A stretch of 64,000 nucleotides of DNA from Atrina japonica. Taxonomy: Eukaryota; Mollusca; Bivalvia; Pterioida; Pinnidae. The stretch is taken from contig BROG01000920.1 of NCBI GenBank assembly GCA_030159075.1, positions 62,001 through 126,000 of the forward strand, written 5' to 3'. Of the stretch, positions 5,875-51,900 are shown piece by piece. Below the pieces are notes generated by a model. It had not been told where the DNA came from and searched no databases. It saw only the letters and a list, made by a program, of their open reading frames with translations. Both the position numbers and the translations under genes were made by a program. Within the stretch, counting starts at the first letter, position 1, and every line of letters begins with the position of its first letter.

Positions 5875-18477
<12,603 letters not shown>

Positions 18478-33900: not shown

Positions 33901-36900
33901 TGTTAAGATTTTTTGTGGTATAGGTATTGGAGCTGTTATACGCATATATATGACAGTCACAGATTTTCCACCTTGTTATAAAGGTCGAATTAAGAACCAT
34001 TCCCAATGGAAAAATTAGAATTTTTTCCCAATTGGCTGTCAAATTTTCCCAATTGAAGTCAAATGACAATGAATTTGGAAATTCTTGTATTTTCAAACAG
34101 TTTTGTGTGTTTTTAGATTTACTAATTTCAATAAAATTTTGATCAAATTCTCAATTTAAAAGCCCTCAGAACCCACTTCCAAAAGAGTGTAGAAAATCCC
34201 TGATTGTACTGTGCTCTTACTTCTATACTGATTACAGTTTGCCTGTTCATTTTGAACATGCCCAGGTTGAAATACAGAGATCTTTCTAAGCTCACTTAAG
34301 CTTGGACCAACAGATCATGTGAGCTATTGTTCTCACTTGACTATGCTTGATGTTTCAAGATTCTTTTCCTCTGAAATTACTTATCAAATCTAAATAATAA
34401 TTATCAGTAGGATATTATCTTTAAAATATGTTATATGACCTCTTATCAAATATGGCAGTCTTGGCTAAAATTTAACACTTTAATTGGACTTATCTCCAAA
34501 CGTATGTAGTAGTTGTCAAAAGTCATTACGTCAGAATCTTGGAAGCATCTAGTTTTATAAATATAACTCTGAAAGCATACATATATATGTCATGTTCATA
34601 CATTTAAAGATGACACTTGTATCAATAGTTATCATTTTCAGATAAAAACATATGATTACCATTCATATATATATAACTTAAGTTTGTTTGATGCAGGTAA
34701 CTGGAGTTGTCGGCAGAGCTGAAGTTTTGTCCTCCATATTTTTCCTAGCCGCTTTAATGACATATTCTAAGTGTACAGCTTACCATTCTACTACAAGTTA
34801 GTTTGATTTTTGTTTTTCTTTCCTTTATTTTTCTCTATCTTGCTCTCATGCTCTCACTGTTGTCTCTCTCTCTCTTGCCCTCTTAAATTTTCTCTCATTT
34901 TATTTTCTCCCTCTCTCTCTCTTTCCCATTTCACACTTTTGTTTTTCTTCTTGTTCTCTCTTTCCTTCTTCTTATTTTTTCCCCACCTCTCTCTCTCTTA
35001 AATGTATAATTTCTGAAATAATCTTTGACAAATATGTTCTGATAAAGATTTAGATAATGAATGAGCAGTTGAAATTTTAAAGTACATGTATATCTATAGT
35101 CTGAATTGTAAGCAATATCAATTAAAGGGAAATGATCTGTATCATAACAACAGGCTGTTTAATTGAGAAATGTAACTGCAGAAGGTGGATTACAATGATA
35201 TAGGTACATGAATCTGATGATCTTTTCAGAATGGCCACCTCTGATTGGTACAGTTGTCTTGGTAACCATAGCAATGCTGTGCAAGGAACAAGGTATCACA
35301 GTGATTGGTGTTTGCTGTGTGTATGAAGTCTTCATAGCTCAAAGGGTAGGTCTGCTTGTACATTTCATTTGTTTTACATTTGATTTGTTTTATTTTTGTT
35401 TTATGTCCAGCCATGAATTTTTCACCATTATGGAGACACCACCAGCTAAAATTTCATAAATTTGGAACAGTGTGATGGATTTATGCAAATGCAATGAGAG
35501 TAATATAACATGTCACTGGACTTTCCTGAGAGACCTGTGACTGTCACCTCTGATGCTGAGCACTTGTCATGACCTTTTTAAAGACTTATGTTTAAAGTGT
35601 TACCTGGAATCATTCCCAGAGTCTTACGTTTGTGAGATGAATGCTTGAACCACTTCATTCATATTGAAATCTAAGGTTGTATGTTATAATAAAAATAACG
35701 ATTCTTTCCAGACTCATAATCAGTAGAATTATAGCACCAATATATGTTTATTAGCTCACCTGAGCCGAAGGCTCAAGTGAACTATTGTGATCACTCCCCA
35801 ACTGCCATCCGTAAACTTTTCATATTTTCGCCTTCTTTTCTGAAACCACTGAAGGGATTTTGATGAAACTTTACAGGAAGCAAGTGCTCAACGTCCTTTA
35901 CCAAGTTGGTAGTTTTCAGCCAGATTGGCCCTGGGGTGAATCTGGGGTGGGGCAAAATAAGTCACATGACGTACCCCTCTTTAAAAATCTTCTTCTCCAG
36001 AACTGCTGCATGAATTGAAAAACGGATTGTTTCCTAGTGATCTACATGAATTTGTAGTGTTAAGCCAGATCGACCCAGAGGTGAATCTGGGGTGGGGCAA
36101 AATAGGTCACATAACGTATCCCTCTTTAAAAATCTTCTTCTCCAGAACCGTTTCATGAGTTGAAAAACAGGTTGTTCATGAGTGATCTACATGGAAGTAT
36201 GATTTAAGTTTTTTATTTTTTATAGAAATCAGAATATTAATTTTTTATGTGTTTTTGAGGGCTTTTCAGACTTTGTCATTTTCATTCATTTTTGCATGAT
36301 TTCCTCAATTATCTCCCCTTGCATTCACTTTGATGTATTTACTTAATGTGTTTTACGTGTAATCAGGTGAAAAAATGTTTTTTTGTGTAGGAATTTTGTC
36401 GAAATTTCAAGAATTTTTTAATTAATAAGACTGCCAAAAAAAAAGAGGAGGGGGTGTATTTTTCACACTATCAGCTTTTGTTTCAAACCCACTGGTGGAG
36501 TTATGATAAAACTTTAAAGGAAGCAAGTACTTATGGTCTTCTACCAAATTTGTAGTTTTCAGCCAGATCGGCCTAGGGATGGATCCAGGATGGGGCAAAA
36601 AAAGTTACATAAGGTACCCCTTATAAGGCAATATTGTTTCTTAGCCAAATCAGCTTACATGTACATAATCTTCTTGGTCTTCTATCAACATTTGTAGATG
36701 GTTCTTAGGCGAGCATTTGAGGCTGTCTTAGGCCTCTTGTATTATACCTCTTCATAATTTCTAGGGTTTTCATTTGGTCAATTAGTAGTTTTAACTGGCA
36801 CAATATTACTAGGGTGATATTGTTCAGCAGGGTGATATTTGAATAAATATCACACGTACAGAAATGAATGTGCATAAGGTTAATTTTCTGCAAGTATGAT

Positions 36901-42900: not shown

Positions 42901-45900
42901 TTCTAATACATGTACATCATGTGATCTTTCTGTTTAGGACATCAGAGTACAGTTTATTTATGTCAGCTTTGAAAATCAACACAAGAAATGCAAAGTTGTT
43001 CAACAATGTCGGACATGCTTTGGAAAAGATCCCAAAATATGAAGAAGCTTTGGAATACTTCATCAAAGCCGCAAGGTGAGAGTTATGTTTTCCTATTACA
43101 ATTGTTGCCATGCTTTACTTTTATTATAAGTTTTTACTATCAAGTTGTCTGCCCTTTGTTGTTGAGATCTAATTATTCGTGTTCTTTTTGGCCATCAGAA
43201 AGTTTTATAGTACCATGTATGATACCATGTCTAAGTGATAATGATCTTCATGTCAAAATTGTGGCATGTCACCTGTATCTTCTAATGTAGACTCTATACT
43301 AAACTTATATCAACAGTACTTCATGTAGTCTCTATACCAAACTTATATCAACAGTACTTCATGTAGACTCTATACCAAACTTATATCAACAGTACTTCAT
43401 GTAGATGCTATACCAAACTTATATCAACAGTACTTCATGTAGTCTCTATACCAAACTTATATCAACAGTACTTCATGTAGATGCTATACCAAACTTATAT
43501 CAACAGTACTTCATGTAGACTCTATACCAAACTTATATCAACAGTACTTCATGTAGACTCTATACCAAACTTATATCAACAGTACTTCATGTAGACTCTA
43601 TACCAAACTTATATCAACAGTACTTCATGTAGACTCTATACCAAACTTATATCAACAGTACTTCATGTAGACTCTATACCAAACTTATATCAACAGTACT
43701 TCATGTAGACTCTATACCAAACTTATATTAACAGTACTTCATGTAGATGCTATACCAAACTTATATCAACAGTACTTCATGTAGACTCTATACCAAACTT
43801 ATATCAACAGTACTTCATGTAGTCTATATATCAAACTTATATCAAATGGTATATCTTGTAGTCCCTATAACAACTAAAGAACAAATAGCAGTTCATGTAG
43901 ATTAGGAACCTTTAATGTTCAGTGAAAAAAAAACCCTAATGATATAACATGTTATTAGTAGTTTTGATGTACAGGATAAATTGAAATATACCTTGTTACC
44001 ATAGATACCCATAAAAGTTGTTTATATAGAATAGTTAGTCTGTTTTAAAAAAAAACTGTTTTGGACTTAATCAATTTTCAATTTCAAAAGAAGACTGTTA
44101 GTGGTCAGGTTAAATGTGAGGATGTCAAATATATAGGTGTGAGGTGAGCTTTGTGATCTTGGATTACTCTATGAAGGTGTGTGGTGAGCTTTATGATCTT
44201 TGATTACTGTATGTAGGTGTGAGGTGAGCTTTGTGATCTTTGATTACTCTATGCAGGTGTGAGGTGAGCTTTGTGATCTTTGATTACTGTATGTAGATGT
44301 GAGGTGAGCTTTGTGATCTTTGATTACTCTATGCAGGTGTGAGGTGAGCTTTGTGATCTTTGATTACTTAATGTAGATGTGAGGTGGGCTTTATGATCTT
44401 TGATTACTCTATGTAGGTGTGAGGTGAGCTTTGTGATCTTTGATTACTGTATGTAGGTGTGAGGTGGACTTTGTGATCTTTGATTACTCAATGCAGGTGT
44501 GAGGTGAGCTTTGTGATCTTTGATTACTTAATGTAGATGTGAGGTGGGCTTTGTGATCTTTGATTACTCTATGTAGGTGTGAGGTGAGCTTTGTGATCTT
44601 TGATTACTGTATGTAGGTGTGAGGTGGACTTTGTGATCTTTGATTACTCAATGTAGGTGTGAGGTGAGCTTTGAGATCTTTGATTACTCAATGTAGGTGT
44701 GAGGTGGACTTTGTGATCTTGGATTACTCAATGTAGATGTGAGGTGGGCTTTGTGATCTTTGATTACTCTATGTATATGTTAGGTGAGCTTTGAGATCTT
44801 TGATTACTCAATGTAGATGTGAGGTTAGTTTTGTGATCTTTGATTACTGTATGTAGGTGTGAGGTGAGCTTTGTGATCTTTGATTACTGTATGTAGATGT
44901 GAGGTTAGTTTTGTGATCTTTGATTACTGTATGTAGGTGTGAGGCGAGCTTTGTGATCTGCATTTACTGTATATTTCAGTGTACAACCTGATGACATTGG
45001 AGCACACATAAATGTAGGGAGAACGTATAGCAACATGAATATGACTGATGAGGCAGAAGGAGCATATAGGAAAGCCATGGCTCTCTTCCCACCTGTCAAA
45101 CCAGGTATGTTAATGCTTTGTAATATTCAATAATTTACTGGGCATGTACTTATATCCCCTTTATTATAACCCCACCTCTATTTACCTCTTCTTTCATCCC
45201 TGGAATTTGAAAGTTGGTTTGGTTAAATAATTGTCAACAAACATTAATGGCAGATTATATCTTGTGGTTTCTTAATGTTTATGATTATTGTTTAAATTTG
45301 GTATCATCATTATGTACAAGGAGTGTTCCAAAAATAATGTCATCTGTGCATTTTCTCACAGAAATTGTGCAGTGTGAACTCAAACTCTCCTTGTTTCCAT
45401 AGAGATATCACTGAAGCAAAACACAGGTAAAAATCTCACTCACAAGTACACTGGCATTTGTATGGTGTACATCAATTTGTAGCGTATTCATTACACTATA
45501 CACAAAATGACTGGTAAAAGAGCAGAAAATGTGCTTGAAATTAGAGTCTGCATAAAAGGTAAGTCGCTACTTGGCATAAAACCTGTAGATATTTACAGTG
45601 AAGTGTGAGATATTTATAGCGAGGGTCAAATGTCTCACAGGTCTATTTGTAGGTAGGTAGCTAAATTTAGGCTGGACAGCAGCAACTTAAAGATTCTATT
45701 CATCCAGGTCATCCTGCAACAATTACTTCTAAAAGCAACATAAAAAAAATCTGTATTATCCTTAAAAAAGATGCCTGATACACAGTGAGGCAGTTAGTCA
45801 AGTTTACAAACTTGTTTAGTCTCCCACAAAACCTCTTGTTTTGATAGCTTTATATGTTGCTTTAAGTCTTCTACACACTGCCTCTGGGTAGTAATAAAGA

Positions 45901-48900
45901 CATGATCTGATTTGCTCATAAGTCACTAGTCCTAATTCTTTGTAAAATGGTCACAAGTCATAAGTGTGGTCTTAAGACTAAGTTTAAGACTTAGGACCTT
46001 TAGTAAAACAGGCCCCAGGGTATCTTAAGACAAGGATATCTTTCTAAAGACTGGTGTATATAGGATTTGCCTTATTTTCTTTATCACTGGTACCTAAATA
46101 CTGTTCAAATTTCACTTTTATAAAATAAGCAAATTTTTTTTTTTCTTACAGGGAAAAGTTACAAAGCACGCATTGCTCCAAATCATCTGAATGTGTTTTT
46201 AAACTTAGCATCTCTAGTGTCCAAGAATCAGTCTCGTCTACATGAAGCAGAAAAAGTAAGTATGGAGTGACAGAAATGCAACATTTAAATTAAAAATATA
46301 TTACAAATATTTGATTTTATACCAACAAATATGATTGTTTAAAATACAATTATGACTGCTCATGATTGCTCCTTTAGTTAAAGCATTACAAATGTGAGGT
46401 CTCAGAAATACAATATTGACTGTTCATGATTGCTTGATTAGTTAAAGCATCTGCTACACAAATGTCTGGTCATGTAATTACAATTATGACTGTTCACAAT
46501 TGTTGAGAACATTTGCCACACTAATGGGCAGTTGTTAGTTTGATTCCTGATATTAGCTCACACCTAGGCTTCTTTTAAAAAGATAGTCAGTGTTCCTTTG
46601 CTTTTAGATTGGTTCAAGTTCATAGCACAGATCAAAGTGTGGTGCAGTTCATCCTTTGCTGTCTCTTTAAGTGGAACAGCTTCTAAAAAATAGATGATTT
46701 ATTTACAACACAGTATACAGTGAAAGAAATTATGCAAAGGCTGTATTGGTGTTAGTGCTTTCACATAAGTTATAAATTAACAAAAAATAACTTAATTAGT
46801 TACCCATAGGTTCCTAGGCGGGATTTTAGTTCTGCATTGTCTCTTAATGTCCTTCCATTCATCCACTGTTTTGTATTGTCCAGGCTATATCTTCCAAACT
46901 TTCTCATTTCTTCAACTAGGACAGATTGTCACATACAGAATTTGCACTCCTATACCACTCTTATTTTTAGAATAATTCCCGTTTGTTAATTTTATTTGTC
47001 CAGGTGAATTCTAATTCTTTTCTTCACTCAGGGTCCTCATATTTGGTACAGGTATTCATCCTAAGTACACCGCGTGTAACATAGATAAATCCTACCACCC
47101 TTATTTATAGAGTTGTTCCCCTTTTTTGATTTTTCATACTTTTTTGTGTGTTTGTAGCTCTTGAGAACAGCCATTAACATGCGACCAGATTATGTCAAAG
47201 GTTACATCAACAGAGGTGATTTATTGGTCAAGTTAGGAAAGTAAGTTTTTGTTTTAATGGTGTTTTATGCCACACTCAATTTTAGCTTGCCAGGACGAAA
47301 GTCCTGAGACCTAATGTCATACCCCTTGCGTTGTTGTTGTTGGCGTCTGTAGACAAGAAATTAACTTGGCCAATATATTTTTATGCCCCCGGCCTGAAAG
47401 GTCTGCTGAGGGCATATAGTGTTTGGATCATCCGTCTGTCTCACTGTTTGTCTGTCCATAATTCCATCCCGCTTGCATATAAAATGTAATATTTCAAGTT
47501 TGGATAGTGATACAGTAACCAGATTTGGACTGTAAGTTCATCTAAGGGTTGCTCATACTTCACTGACATCACATTCCCCTGGGGGTGTGGTCAAAATGTA
47601 GGATAATGCAATATTTAAAGTTTCGATTGTGATACAGTAACCATACTTGGATTGTAAGTTCATCTAAGGGTTGCTTACACTTCACTGACCCTGGGGTACA
47701 CTTTACTGACATCACATGGGGGTGGGATGGGTTAATTTTATTTGCCAGCATAGAAATTTGTTGGGACTAGGGGCATTTATGTTTCATTAACCACAAGGGA
47801 CAATGCTTTGATATTTCACATATAGATGACCAGAATTTCCATTTGGTACGGAGACTTTTGGCCTAGTGACCTTGGACATTGACCTACTTTTTAAAAACTG
47901 TAACCTTAGCTATAATCTGTTAAACCATGAAGGATAAGGCTTTGATATTTTGCATATAAATTTCTTATGATCAGAGCTTTCATTTAGTACCTTGCTTTTT
48001 GTGCACTGACTAGAAGTGAGAGAGTACTTGATTTAAAGATAATGCTCTAAAGTTAAAACCACTGTCTAACATGATTTGATATGTGTTTTTCTTATCAGTA
48101 AGAACTAGGATGAGTTGGATTATTGTAGGGATCTACATGAGGGATTTTTTTCACTTGTCCAATTGGACAAGTAATATAAAAAAGTAACTTGTTTGAATCA
48201 CAAATCCATTTGTCCGTAATTTACAAAGAAAAAATAAGATTATTAACATTTGAATCAAACAAAACAAATGGATATGATCATATTGATATAAAAGTGCTCA
48301 CTCCTATTAATTAATGCATAAATTTTATCCAATTCACTCTTTGTTGAGCCTTAAAAAATTCGTTAAACATGACCATCCAGGATCTGTTACGGTAAAGGTT
48401 AGGAAAATGGCGCCACACTTCTATCGGGTGAAACTCTAAAATGAGGTCTTTTAAAATCTTTCCCAATTGTTTCTTTGCATTTTTAAAAGGATGTTGAGGT
48501 AATCTTTTACTATATAGAATATATTTGTGTGCCGTAAAGTAAGGAAGATTTTAAGAAAAATTATAAAAAATCATCTGGGAACTGTACCAGTTCAGTAGAA
48601 TCTCGTTATCTTGAAATTCATGGGACCTCAAAGTTCTCGAAACCTCGAAGTTTTGTACAGGTCCCGATTTTTTTCCTTCATAAATTAAGTAAATTAACTC
48701 TTGATCTCTTGAACGTCAAAACCTGTAAGTTTTTGAAACTTCGAAGTCAATTGGAAGTCCCGATTTATATATTTCTTTACATTTCACTCTCGAAACCTTG
48801 AAGTTTGAGTAATTACTGGTAAATTCATTAAAAGTCAACGCTGTAAGCCTTCCTTACTTGGAAGATTAAACAATAGATGTTTTGATAAACGCGTGACAAG

Positions 48901-51900
48901 TAGTCCCTGATCTAATCCAGTAGTGATTGACAGGATTGTTAATTAACCAAAACAGAAGAACTGTTAAAAAAGTGTCTTAGACTACAGTGTTGAGTACAAG
49001 TGTCACAGCCAAGTCATTTTTAGATCTAGTGGGAATGTAGATTACTGAAGTAGTAGTGAATGCTACTGCAACATTATGTACCTGATATCCAAATTGGGTA
49101 CATAATAACATATTTACACATTTTCATTTTTGAAAATTAATTAGGGGATTGTTTATGACAAAATTCATACGAATTATGAAAACAAAATCCCCTATTTTGT
49201 GTAGTTTTAAGAACCTATATCGATCAAAATGCCCACTTCCGGAACTCCCGAAACCTCAAACTCTTGAAACCTCGAAGTTTTTTGGTGGTCCCCTAGACTT
49301 CGAGGTATGGAACTTACCTTTAGACCTGTATCAATTCTTTATCATCAATATGTAATTTTACATTCTATAGACCTGTATCACTTCTTTATCATTAATATGT
49401 TATTTTACATTCTATAGACCTGTATCACTTCTTTATCATTAATATGTTATTTTACATTCTATAGACCTGTATCAATTCCTTATTATTAATATGTTATTTT
49501 ACATTCTATAGACCTGTATCAATTCTTTATCATTAATATGTTATTTTACATTCTATAGACCTGTATCAATTCCTTATTATTAATATGTTATTTTACATTC
49601 TATAGACCTGTATCAATTCTTTATCATTAATATGTTATTTTACATTCTATAGACCTGTATCACTTCTTTATCATTAATATGTTATTTTACATTCTATAGA
49701 CCTGTATCAATTCCTTATTATTAATATGTTATTTTACATTCTATAGACCTGTATCAATTCTTTATCATTAATATGTTATTTTACATTCTATAGACCTGTA
49801 TCAATTCTTTATCATTAATATGTTATTTTACATTCTATAGACCTGTATCAATTCTTTATCATTAATATGTTATTTTACATTCTATAGACCTGTATCAATT
49901 CTTTATCATTAATATGTTATTTTACATTCTATAGACCTGTATCACTTCTTTATCATTAATATGTTATTTTACATTCTATAGACCTGTATCAATTCTTTAT
50001 CATTAATATGTTATTTTACATTCTATAGACCTGTATCAATTCTTTATCATTAATATGTTATTTTACATACTTTGTGACCTGTATCAATTCTTTATCATTA
50101 ATATGTTATTTTACATACTTTGTGACCTGTATCAATTCTTTATCATTAATATGTTATTTTACATTCTATAGACCTGAGGATGCAATCAAGGAATACCGTA
50201 CAGCTTTGTCATATGAAAATGACAATGCAGATGTATATTTTAATGTAAGTATGTTTTGGAAGTATTATATCCCTGTTATTTAAACTCTGAGTATGACTTA
50301 ATATTCTCGCACCTGAGAGAGACAGATCTCGTTTTTTATCAGTACTGCAAAATTCTATCTGGAACTGCTGATCCAGAACACTTTGTATCCCTACACATGT
50401 TGCCTGCACTGTTTGTAATCATGGGGGGTTCAAGGAGGTTTTCGGTATTATTGGGTATTATATCTGTACATAATGTTTATCAGACAATTATTTTACCTGT
50501 ATAACACCTGCTCATAATTATTGTTGGGACAGTGATTTTACCTGTGTATGTTCAGGATAAAGATACAGCAGCTGTGAATTTCCTGACATTTAGATCTGTG
50601 GTTTTGTATACAGGATAGGGACTCATGTGACATTAACGACATTTTGGTCTCATGTTTGTATTAACTTGATTGGTCCATATTTCTGGTCTCATGTTTGTAT
50701 TAACTTGATTGGTCCATATTTCTGGTCTCATGTTTGTATTAACTTGATTGGTCCATATTTCTGGTCTCATGTTTGTATTAACTTGATTGGTCCATATTTC
50801 TGGTCTCATGTTTGTATTAACTTGATTGGTCCATATTTCTGGTCTCATGTTTGTATTAACTTGATTGGTCCATATTTCTGGTCTCATGTTTGTATTAACT
50901 TGATGGGTCCATATTTCCGATGGCACTTCACTATTAGCATTTTCAAGGTGTCCTGTCAACCTTTTAACACTTATGCTAAGTTTGGATGCCATGGGTGGTC
51001 AAAATCTAAGTTTTGGTACCATCAGTTTGGTGTACTGCCATCTGAACCTAATTGTCTTTTATATCTGTAAGTAATTATAAATGGGGTCATTTACAGAGAT
51101 CAACAATCATGAATATTTCCAATTGTCATGAAGGACAAGTAGTATTGAAATCTACCTGTATCAGTGCAAAAATGACTTGTCTGAAAATCAAGTGTAACAT
51201 GTAAAGATATTGTTTTGTGTTTAAGCAAGTATAATTTTTTTTGAATTACTTTTTGTCTTCAACAATTTCACTTGTTCTGTCGGACATTTCAGAAGTAACA
51301 TTTACTTGTCCAACCACAAAATGCACTTGTTCCAGACAACTGGACAAACCAGATTGTTGAGCTGTGCATTAATGTGGTCATGTCTTCATCTATACAACTG
51401 TTATTCATACTCTAACTGAGAAGATGACTTAACATATTGTTATAATCACAATGTCTGTAATTGACCTATCGCCAAATGCCCCACATGGAACCTTTTGGCA
51501 AACTTTTCCATTATGACAATTACAATTGAATGACGTCAAAAAAGCACATGAACAGCCATGTGTCAGACACCTGGGGATAGGTCAGTTTTAATCATCTGTA
51601 TTATAATTGAAATAATGAATTTGATGTTGTATGTTTGTTTGTTTTAGATTGGAGTAGTATCATTGGAGCTTGGGAGAACCAGGGATGCTAGAGAAAACTT
51701 CGAACTAGCCTTACAAATTGATCCTGATCATGAGGTACAAATGAGTTTATCATACTGTATACAGGGTCATTTTTCACCCTGTGTTATTTTTGCCCTATTA
51801 AACATGCAAACAGTTTTGCCCTGTTTTAATTAGTCCATGCTTGTTACAATTCCATTCAAGAAGCATGTGTGTAATGTGTATAACAGTCAGAGATTTTTAT

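What the first reader, a model, noticed from the sequence alone, without database searches (positions are those of the whole stretch)
49318..50171. Minisatellite that has copied a 3' splice site: 15 decoy acceptors in front of TMTC3 exon 14
The 47-bp unit includes TTTTACATTCTATAG|ACCTG, the same junction that opens exon 14 (ACCTGAGG). Fifteen intact copies, each with an ATTAAT branch-like motif and a T-rich run, precede the true site; the two units nearest the real exon have lost the AG (ACTTTGTGACCTG). From the exon 13 phase, splicing to any decoy reads K-P-V-S-(I/L)-(L/P)-Y-(H/Y)-stop, so all would give a truncated, probably unstable mRNA. Either the spliceosome reliably ignores 15 near-identical sites, or copy number tunes TMTC3 output. 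The loss of AG in just the last two units hints at selection against the closest competitors.
Basis: partly seen in the sequence, partly recalled or inferred. Interest (0 to 1): 0.78.

Follow-up and report, generated by a model that had tools for sequence, protein, structure and literature searches.

The report
Splice-site-copying minisatellite in bivalve TMTC3
In a bivalve gene, a short repeat has copied the sequence that marks the start of an exon many times over, a known curiosity described in lancelets that the splicing machinery most likely ignores, but which makes a neat natural test of how true splice sites are told from copies.

Summary
A 47-bp minisatellite (49321-50176, 18.2 copies) runs across the 3' splice site of TMTC3 exon 14 and 5 nt into the exon. 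Fifteen copies carry TATAG|ACCTG; the two 48-bp units nearest the exon have lost the AG; the true site is 50172. Splicing to any of the 15 decoys gives an early stop. The genome is a bivalve's; its TMTC3 is closest to oysters.

This is the structure called a "mirage" in amphioxus: tandem repeats spanning an intron/exon boundary, reported there not to disturb splicing. A human donor-side counterpart is the ABCA7 VNTR. Best explanation: neutral, microhomology-seeded expansion of the acceptor, with the true site picked by exon context; decoys rarely used. A control fits this: 171 of 1537 other AGs across the gene score as high as the real exon 14 acceptor.

The "selection against nearest competitors" is not supported: the two dead units are identical, most simply one event plus duplication.

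New here: a second array in the same gene (40 bp, 44130-44972) lies in register with the exon 11 acceptor and carries 18 acceptor-like sites. Use of decoys, length variation and effect on output could not be tested. New member of a known kind.

The parts
49321..50176 (+). 47-bp minisatellite spanning the intron 13 / exon 14 junction, 18.2 copies
   Evidence: TRF; unit table. The 15 units from 49324 to 50028 have mean pairwise identity 97.1%.
49321..49370 (+). 5' edge unit; begins with TAGACCTG (edge junction TTTAG|ACCTG at 49324) and carries two edge variants (ATCAAT, TAATTT)
49371..50029 (+). 15 decoy 3' splice sites TATAG|ACCTG at 47-bp steps (first base after the AG given)
   Evidence: 7 of 15 identical to the true site over the whole 47-nt unit, all 15 over at least 16 nt upstream and 5 nt downstream
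50029..50124 (+). two identical 48-bp units ending TACATACTTTGTG (AG lost)
50125..50171 (+). last unit, identical to consensus; holds the presumed branch-point-like motif, T-rich run and TATAG of the true acceptor
50172..50244 (+). TMTC3 exon 14 (73 nt, PEDAIKEYRTALSYENDNADVYFN), first 5 nt shared with the repeat unit, then GTAAGT donor
47158..47240 (+). TMTC3 exon 13 (LRTAINMRPDYVKGYINRGDLLVKLGK), donor GTAAGT
44130..44972 (+). 40-bp minisatellite in intron 10 (TRF 44130-44959), in register with the exon 11 acceptor: TTACTGTAT at 44844, 44884, 44924 and 44964; 18 acceptor-like AGs scoring at or above the exon 14 acceptor
44980..45104 (+). TMTC3 exon 11 (SVQPDDIG...), acceptor TATATTTCAG

Best explanation
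A neutral, mirage-type minisatellite. Two copies of the 8-mer TAGACCTG lay 47 bp apart, one in the intron and one across the exon 14 acceptor; slippage or unequal exchange between them duplicated the interval [branch-point-like ATTAAT, T-rich run, TATAG, ACCTG] and the array grew to 18 copies. Because the array ends 5 nt inside the exon, copy-number change in register leaves one junction against exon 14, so the array is tolerated. The spliceosome uses 50172 because only there is the acceptor followed by the real 73-nt exon and its strong donor (exon definition); decoys are followed by U/A-rich, purine-poor sequence and lie 216-874 nt from the donor. Rare decoy use yields a stop-containing mRNA open to decay. 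Shown: anatomy, register, reading frames, composition. Inferred: origin, splice choice, neutrality.
For: The partial unit left over in the array is exactly the 8 bp TAGACCTG found at both edges. The own-genome DNA search found this one locus in the 832-Mb assembly; the only other hit is a 67% match to a different AT-rich array, seen in part (that search skips very common words). A protein search found no second TMTC3 copy among 12 matches: five exons at this locus, the next best 39% on another contig. The reading across exon 13/14 is intact. Exon 14 is 56% purine with 3 GA[A/G] motifs against 33% and none in the same length after the first decoy, the one decoy compared. Pseudo-acceptors as good as the exon 14 site are common across the gene: 171 of 1537 AGs, 71 of them with a branch-like YTNAY at 18-40 nt (exonic AGs included, true acceptors and the 47-bp array excluded). 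In amphioxus Adh3 and globin genes, mirages were reported not to interfere with regular splicing (PMC3087553 section 16; restated with TnC in a passage of PMC3902484). Minisatellites (3 or more copies, unit of 15 bp or more) make up 9.5% of 218 kb of this contig (43 arrays), so such events have ample opportunity (inference).
Against: No transcript of this species was found: the best protein hits are 71% (full length) and, for the exon 11-15 fragment, 62% over 90% of the query or 84% over 28%, so correct splicing is not shown here. In human ABCA7 a VNTR that starts at a donor site does change splicing of the next exon with length. Two of 13 arrays in the gene lie within 10 bp of an acceptor (0.13 expected, p 0.0074), which could hint at something other than chance, though the threshold and the extension of one array were chosen after the fact.
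Confidence: 0.75

Rival explanations
1. Length-dependent mis-splicing: the array lowers TMTC3 output in proportion to copy number, by decoy use or by skipping of exon 14. Both give a premature stop (skipping reads AAA TTG GAG TAG).
For: All 15 decoys and the skip give a stop (exon 15 start). 14 of 15 decoys score the same as the true acceptor, and the exon 14 acceptor ranks fifth from the bottom of the gene's 18. In ABCA7 a VNTR whose first two bases are the exon 18 donor correlates with exon 19 skipping and lower expression.
Against: In amphioxus, mirages gave normal mRNA. In ABCA7 the decoy-like event itself, retention of one repeat unit, was not affected by VNTR size. Equal-scoring pseudo-sites are common in this gene anyway. 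No expression or genotype data exist here, and no second haplotype was found in the assembly.
Confidence: 0.14
2. AG-exclusion funnel: loss of AG in the last two units was favoured because it clears 143 nt upstream of the true AG, so that branch points in any of three units lead to the same, correct AG.
For: The distance from the true AG back to the previous AG is 143 nt against 47 for each decoy, the longest of the gene's 18 acceptors. Linear search from the branch point to the first AG is an established model (PMC1431707 passages).
Against: The two dead units are identical, so there is most simply one event, not two independent losses. A pair of dead junctions falling next to the last unit by chance is about 1 in 16 (inference). 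Conversion from the dead units into the last unit would destroy the true acceptor, which makes them a hazard (inference).
Confidence: 0.07
3. Assembly artefact: the array or its variants are produced by misassembly.
For: Tandem repeats are prone to it; in the amphioxus globin study one mirage appeared aberrantly assembled in the draft. No reads were available here.
Against: Contigs average about 350 kb (832 Mb in 2347), suggesting long reads; the array is only 856 bp; variant units are interspersed rather than blocked; flanks continue the gene in order.
Confidence: 0.04

Closest known systems
'Mirages' of amphioxus (Adh3, globins BflGb6 and BflGb9, TnC; PGBD5 as an imperfect case)
   Same: Minisatellite-like tandem duplication across an intron/exon boundary; many units carry splice signals; the authentic junction forms part of the transcripts; internal homogenisation with cluster boundaries excluded (PMC3087553, section 16 read and further passages; PMC3902484, one passage).
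   Different: Mollusc instead of lancelet; only 5 exonic nt in the unit; about 18 copies against 6 and 3 in the two BflGb6 haplotypes; length instability and RT-PCR not tested here.
ABCA7 intron 18 VNTR (human)
   Same: Minisatellite whose unit includes a real splice site; 25-bp unit, 592 bp in the reference; a cryptic donor gives retention of one repeat unit (abstract and sections 18 and 21 read).
   Different: Donor side, C-rich, with data tying length to exon 19 skipping and expression (the one-unit retention was not length-dependent); no such data here.
[quoted passage not shown]
   Same: A minisatellite supplying splice-site copies in a transcript (only the title seen, in the reference list of PMC2572611; the paper itself is not held).
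   Different: Donor sites, and by its title the copies are used; here acceptors, use unknown.
Exons with large AG exclusion zones / distant branch points
   Same: AG-free stretch of 100 nt or more before the 3' splice site (143 nt here; PMC1431707 passages).
   Different: Here the zone consists of repeat units, each with its own near branch-like motif.

Membership tests
Mirage (amphioxus-type boundary minisatellite) | Tandem repeats span an exon-intron boundary | tested here: met
   Array 49321-50176 crosses the junction 50171/50172 by 5 nt.
Mirage (amphioxus-type boundary minisatellite) | Repeat units carry AG/GT splice signals | tested here: met
   15 units with TATAG|ACCTG; 14 of 15 score as the true site.
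Mirage (amphioxus-type boundary minisatellite) | Gene reading intact when the edge junction is used | tested here: met
   Exon 13-14 reading aligns without gap to oyster TMTC3.
Mirage (amphioxus-type boundary minisatellite) | Concerted evolution inside, edge units excluded | tested here: inconclusive
   97.1% mean identity inside; 5' edge unit and the two units before the last differ, but the last unit equals the consensus.
Mirage (amphioxus-type boundary minisatellite) | Length instability between haplotypes or somatically | not testable with these tools
   No second copy or haplotype found in the assembly; no reads.
Mirage (amphioxus-type boundary minisatellite) | Regular splicing in spite of the repeats | not testable with these tools
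   No transcript of this species found.
ABCA7-type splicing-modifying VNTR | Unit includes the real splice donor | tested here: not met
   Here the acceptor is included, not the donor.
ABCA7-type splicing-modifying VNTR | Array length correlates with exon skipping or expression | not testable with these tools
   Needs genotypes and RNA.
Distant-branch-point exon | AG exclusion zone of 100 nt or more | tested here: met
   143 nt.
Distant-branch-point exon | Branch point mapped far upstream | not testable with these tools
   Needs lariat mapping; a near branch-like ATTAAT is also present.

The most novel reading that the evidence does not exclude
The TMTC3 array is a copy-number rheostat: equal decoys compete with the exon 14 acceptor, drain pre-mRNA into decay, and fast repeat turnover makes TMTC3 output heritably variable; the intron 10 array does the same at exon 11, and the AG-free last units set the floor.
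Probability: 0.07. Interest if true: 0.75.

Novelty: new member of a known kind. Interest (0 to 1): 0.4.

Why it matters
It extends boundary-copying minisatellites, described in lancelets and (donor side) in humans, to a bivalve, with a clean natural layout: 15 competitors close to or identical with the true acceptor on the intron side, differing in what follows. RNA data from this species would directly measure how much of acceptor choice rests on exon context. A second, more diverged case in the same gene suggests that such arrays may recur in minisatellite-rich genomes; their frequency was not measured.

Tried and rejected
Selection on the last two units: rejected as the leading reading because they are identical. 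Transposon or dispersed satellite as source of the unit: not favoured, since the own-genome search gave one locus plus a 67% match to another array. A degraded inverted-repeat element ends just upstream of the array (arms 48637-48651 / 49297-49311); its end is not part of the unit. RNA folding of 49935-50244: z -1.20, nothing notable. General attraction of arrays to splice sites: first test negative (1 of 13 within 10 bp, p 0.23; 2 of 13 within 50 bp, p 0.33). After extending the intron 10 array by register, 2 of 13 lie within 10 bp of an acceptor, p 0.0074, post hoc. The 13 arrays were picked by hand from TRF rows of 100 bp or more, some merged; two shorter rows in these introns (34023-34064, 35359-35392) were left out. 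A scan without homology of 86 array ends (43 arrays, both strands) in 218 kb gave 2 hits, one of them the exon 14 array, against a background of 2.8%, so no excess. Acceptor-like sites repeated through an array are not special: 7 of 20 window arrays, a hand-made list from TRF, have 0.69 or more per unit on the + strand, 0 of 20 on the - strand. Species name: not settled; a search with the window's 308-aa ORF at 17551 gave two unnamed hits of 46-52%. A survey of mirages through another gene family in the genome was tried but never answered by the server. Literature: seven searches listed no mirage-type report in a mollusc within the held library, but only one search carried a mollusc term (bivalve), so this is no proof of absence. 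An eighth search was for AG exclusion zones. PMC2812944 was opened at outline level only and is not used.

Full report
What was checked. The window belongs to an 832-Mb, 2347-contig assembly (G000, contig C920). The gene is TMTC3: the joined exon translations match oyster TMTC3 best among named hits (Magallana gigas 71%, Crassostrea virginica 69%, Mytilus californianus 66%). Eighteen exons were placed on the window by tblastn and one more (exon 9) by local alignment, nineteen in all. The species was not identified; by this protein it is a bivalve nearer to oysters than to mussels or scallops.

The array. TRF gives a 47-bp unit, 18.2 copies, 49321-50176, 96% matches. Reading the junctions in order: an edge junction TTTAG|ACCTG at 49324; fifteen TATAG|ACCTG from 49371 to 50029; two TTTGTG|ACCTG at 50077 and 50125; and the true TATAG|ACCTGAGG at 50172. 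The two dead units are 48 bp and identical; the last unit is identical to the consensus. So the array passes through the acceptor and 5 nt into the exon. Exon 13 ends ...GGAAA|GTAAGT at 47240, and exon 14 is 50172-50244, 73 nt; together they read VKLGKPEDAIKEYRTALSYENDNADVYFN, in gapless alignment with VKQGQKEEALKVYKTALQYEPDNADVLYN of oyster. Proline at the junction column occurs in 34 of the 102 aligned rows, own included, though not in the oysters (19 of 120 homologues dropped for lack of an anchor), so ACCTG is an unremarkable exon start.

Consequences. All 15 decoys give K-P-V-S-(I/L)-(L/P)-Y-(H/Y)-stop; the edge junction gives a stop after about 30 codons. Skipping exon 14 would read AAA TTG GAG TAG (from the sequences). 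These mis-splices are all unproductive.

How unusual is it? Three controls. First, strength: with a matrix from other acceptors of the gene, 14 of 15 decoys score the same as the true site; 178 of 1538 other AGs in 30991-57810 (exons included; true acceptors and the array excluded) score as high or higher. With a second setting it is 171 of 1537, 71 of them with a branch-like motif at the right distance. Equal-looking pseudo-acceptors are ordinary. Per length the array is denser: 15 in 0.85 kb against about 6.9 per kb elsewhere. Second, placement: the gene's introns hold 13 arrays of 100 bp or more covering 7471 of 24815 intronic bases, so an array edge within 10 bp of some splice site is expected 0.26 times. 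Third, decoy content: 7 of 20 listed arrays in the window carry 0.69 or more acceptor-like sites per unit on the + strand. What stands out is the exact register with the real site, not the presence of decoys.

A second case. The 40-bp array of intron 10 (TRF 44130-44959) continues in register to the exon 11 acceptor: TTACTGTAT stands at 44844, 44884, 44924 and, before the real AG, 44964. Of 11 array units compared with all 18 acceptors, this one matches its own acceptor region with score 36 against at most 20 elsewhere, and the intron 13 array 90 against 25; of the others only one ranks first, by a single point (18 against 17), and on the donor side one ranks first with 20. The intron 10 array carries 18 acceptor-like AGs at or above the exon 14 score; three were read in frame from exon 10 and all three meet a stop. 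Here the real acceptor has diverged (TATATTTCAG against TATGTAG), so the array stops 7 nt short of the junction. Counting it, 2 of 13 arrays lie within 10 bp of an acceptor (expected 0.13, p 0.0074); the extension and threshold were chosen after seeing the data.

Origin. Both edges of the array carry TAGACCTG, and the partial unit is exactly these 8 bases. This fits slippage or unequal exchange between two short direct repeats, one of them across the acceptor (inference). Because the array includes the junction, gain or loss of whole units leaves a junction at the exon (inference).

How the right site is chosen. Decoys and true site are alike for at least 16 nt upstream (7 of 15 for the whole unit) and 5 nt downstream. 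The difference lies beyond: a 73-nt exon with 56% purine and a GTAAGT donor against repeat sequence with 33% purine (the first decoy measured); the nearest decoy would make a 216-nt exon. Exon definition is therefore the most likely discriminator (inference from general knowledge of splicing). The AG-free stretch before the true AG is 143 nt, the longest of 18 acceptors, which under the first-AG search model (PMC1431707, passages) would let three branch-like motifs serve the true AG. I read this as a by-product: the two dead units are most simply one event copied.

Known relatives. [quoted passage not shown] the authors state that Adh3 data and their RT-PCR suggest no interference with regular splicing, that copy number differs between haplotypes (6 and 3 in BflGb6), and that cluster boundaries escape homogenisation (PMC3087553 section 16). 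PMC3902484 adds TnC and the imperfect repeats of PGBD5 (one passage). In human ABCA7 the first two bases of a 25-bp VNTR are the exon 18 donor, retention of one unit occurs but does not depend on length, and exon 19 skipping rises with length (sections 18 and 21). So both outcomes, silent and regulatory, have precedent; the amphioxus cases are reported as silent.

Limits. No transcript of the species was found: full-length search best 71% (best 120 of 3090 listed), fragment search best 62% over 90% of the query, and one 84% match over 28%. No second haplotype was found. Genome-wide frequency of such arrays was not measured because the genome search was mostly unreachable. A scan without homology of 86 array ends in 218 kb found no excess.

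Noticed in passing
window 44130-44980: Second boundary-linked minisatellite (40 bp) in register with the exon 11 acceptor, with 18 acceptor-like AGs. It also holds 10 copies of the donor-like string GAGGTGAGC, though only 3 GT sites there reach a donor score of 7.
   Followed up: partly
window 30991-57810: TMTC3 introns look rich in minisatellites: 7471 of 24815 bp in 13 hand-picked arrays, some with only about 2 copies, against 9.5% in 218 kb of the contig with a stricter rule of 3 or more copies. The two figures are not on the same footing.
   Followed up: no
window 48593-49320: Possible remnant of an inverted-repeat element ending just upstream of the 47-bp array (arms 48637-48651 and 49297-49311); its start CAGTAGAATCTCGTTATCTTGAA resembles pogo/Tigger-type termini (recalled, not tested).
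   Followed up: no
window 2104-63281, 20 arrays: Seven of 20 listed arrays carry 0.69 or more acceptor-like sites per unit on the + strand, none of 20 on the - strand. The asymmetry is unexplained; it may reflect base composition of the + strand on which the matrix was trained.
   Followed up: no
window 17551-18474: 308-aa open frame with two unnamed homologues (46-52% identity) that have no Pfam domain listed; conserved unknown protein.
   Followed up: no
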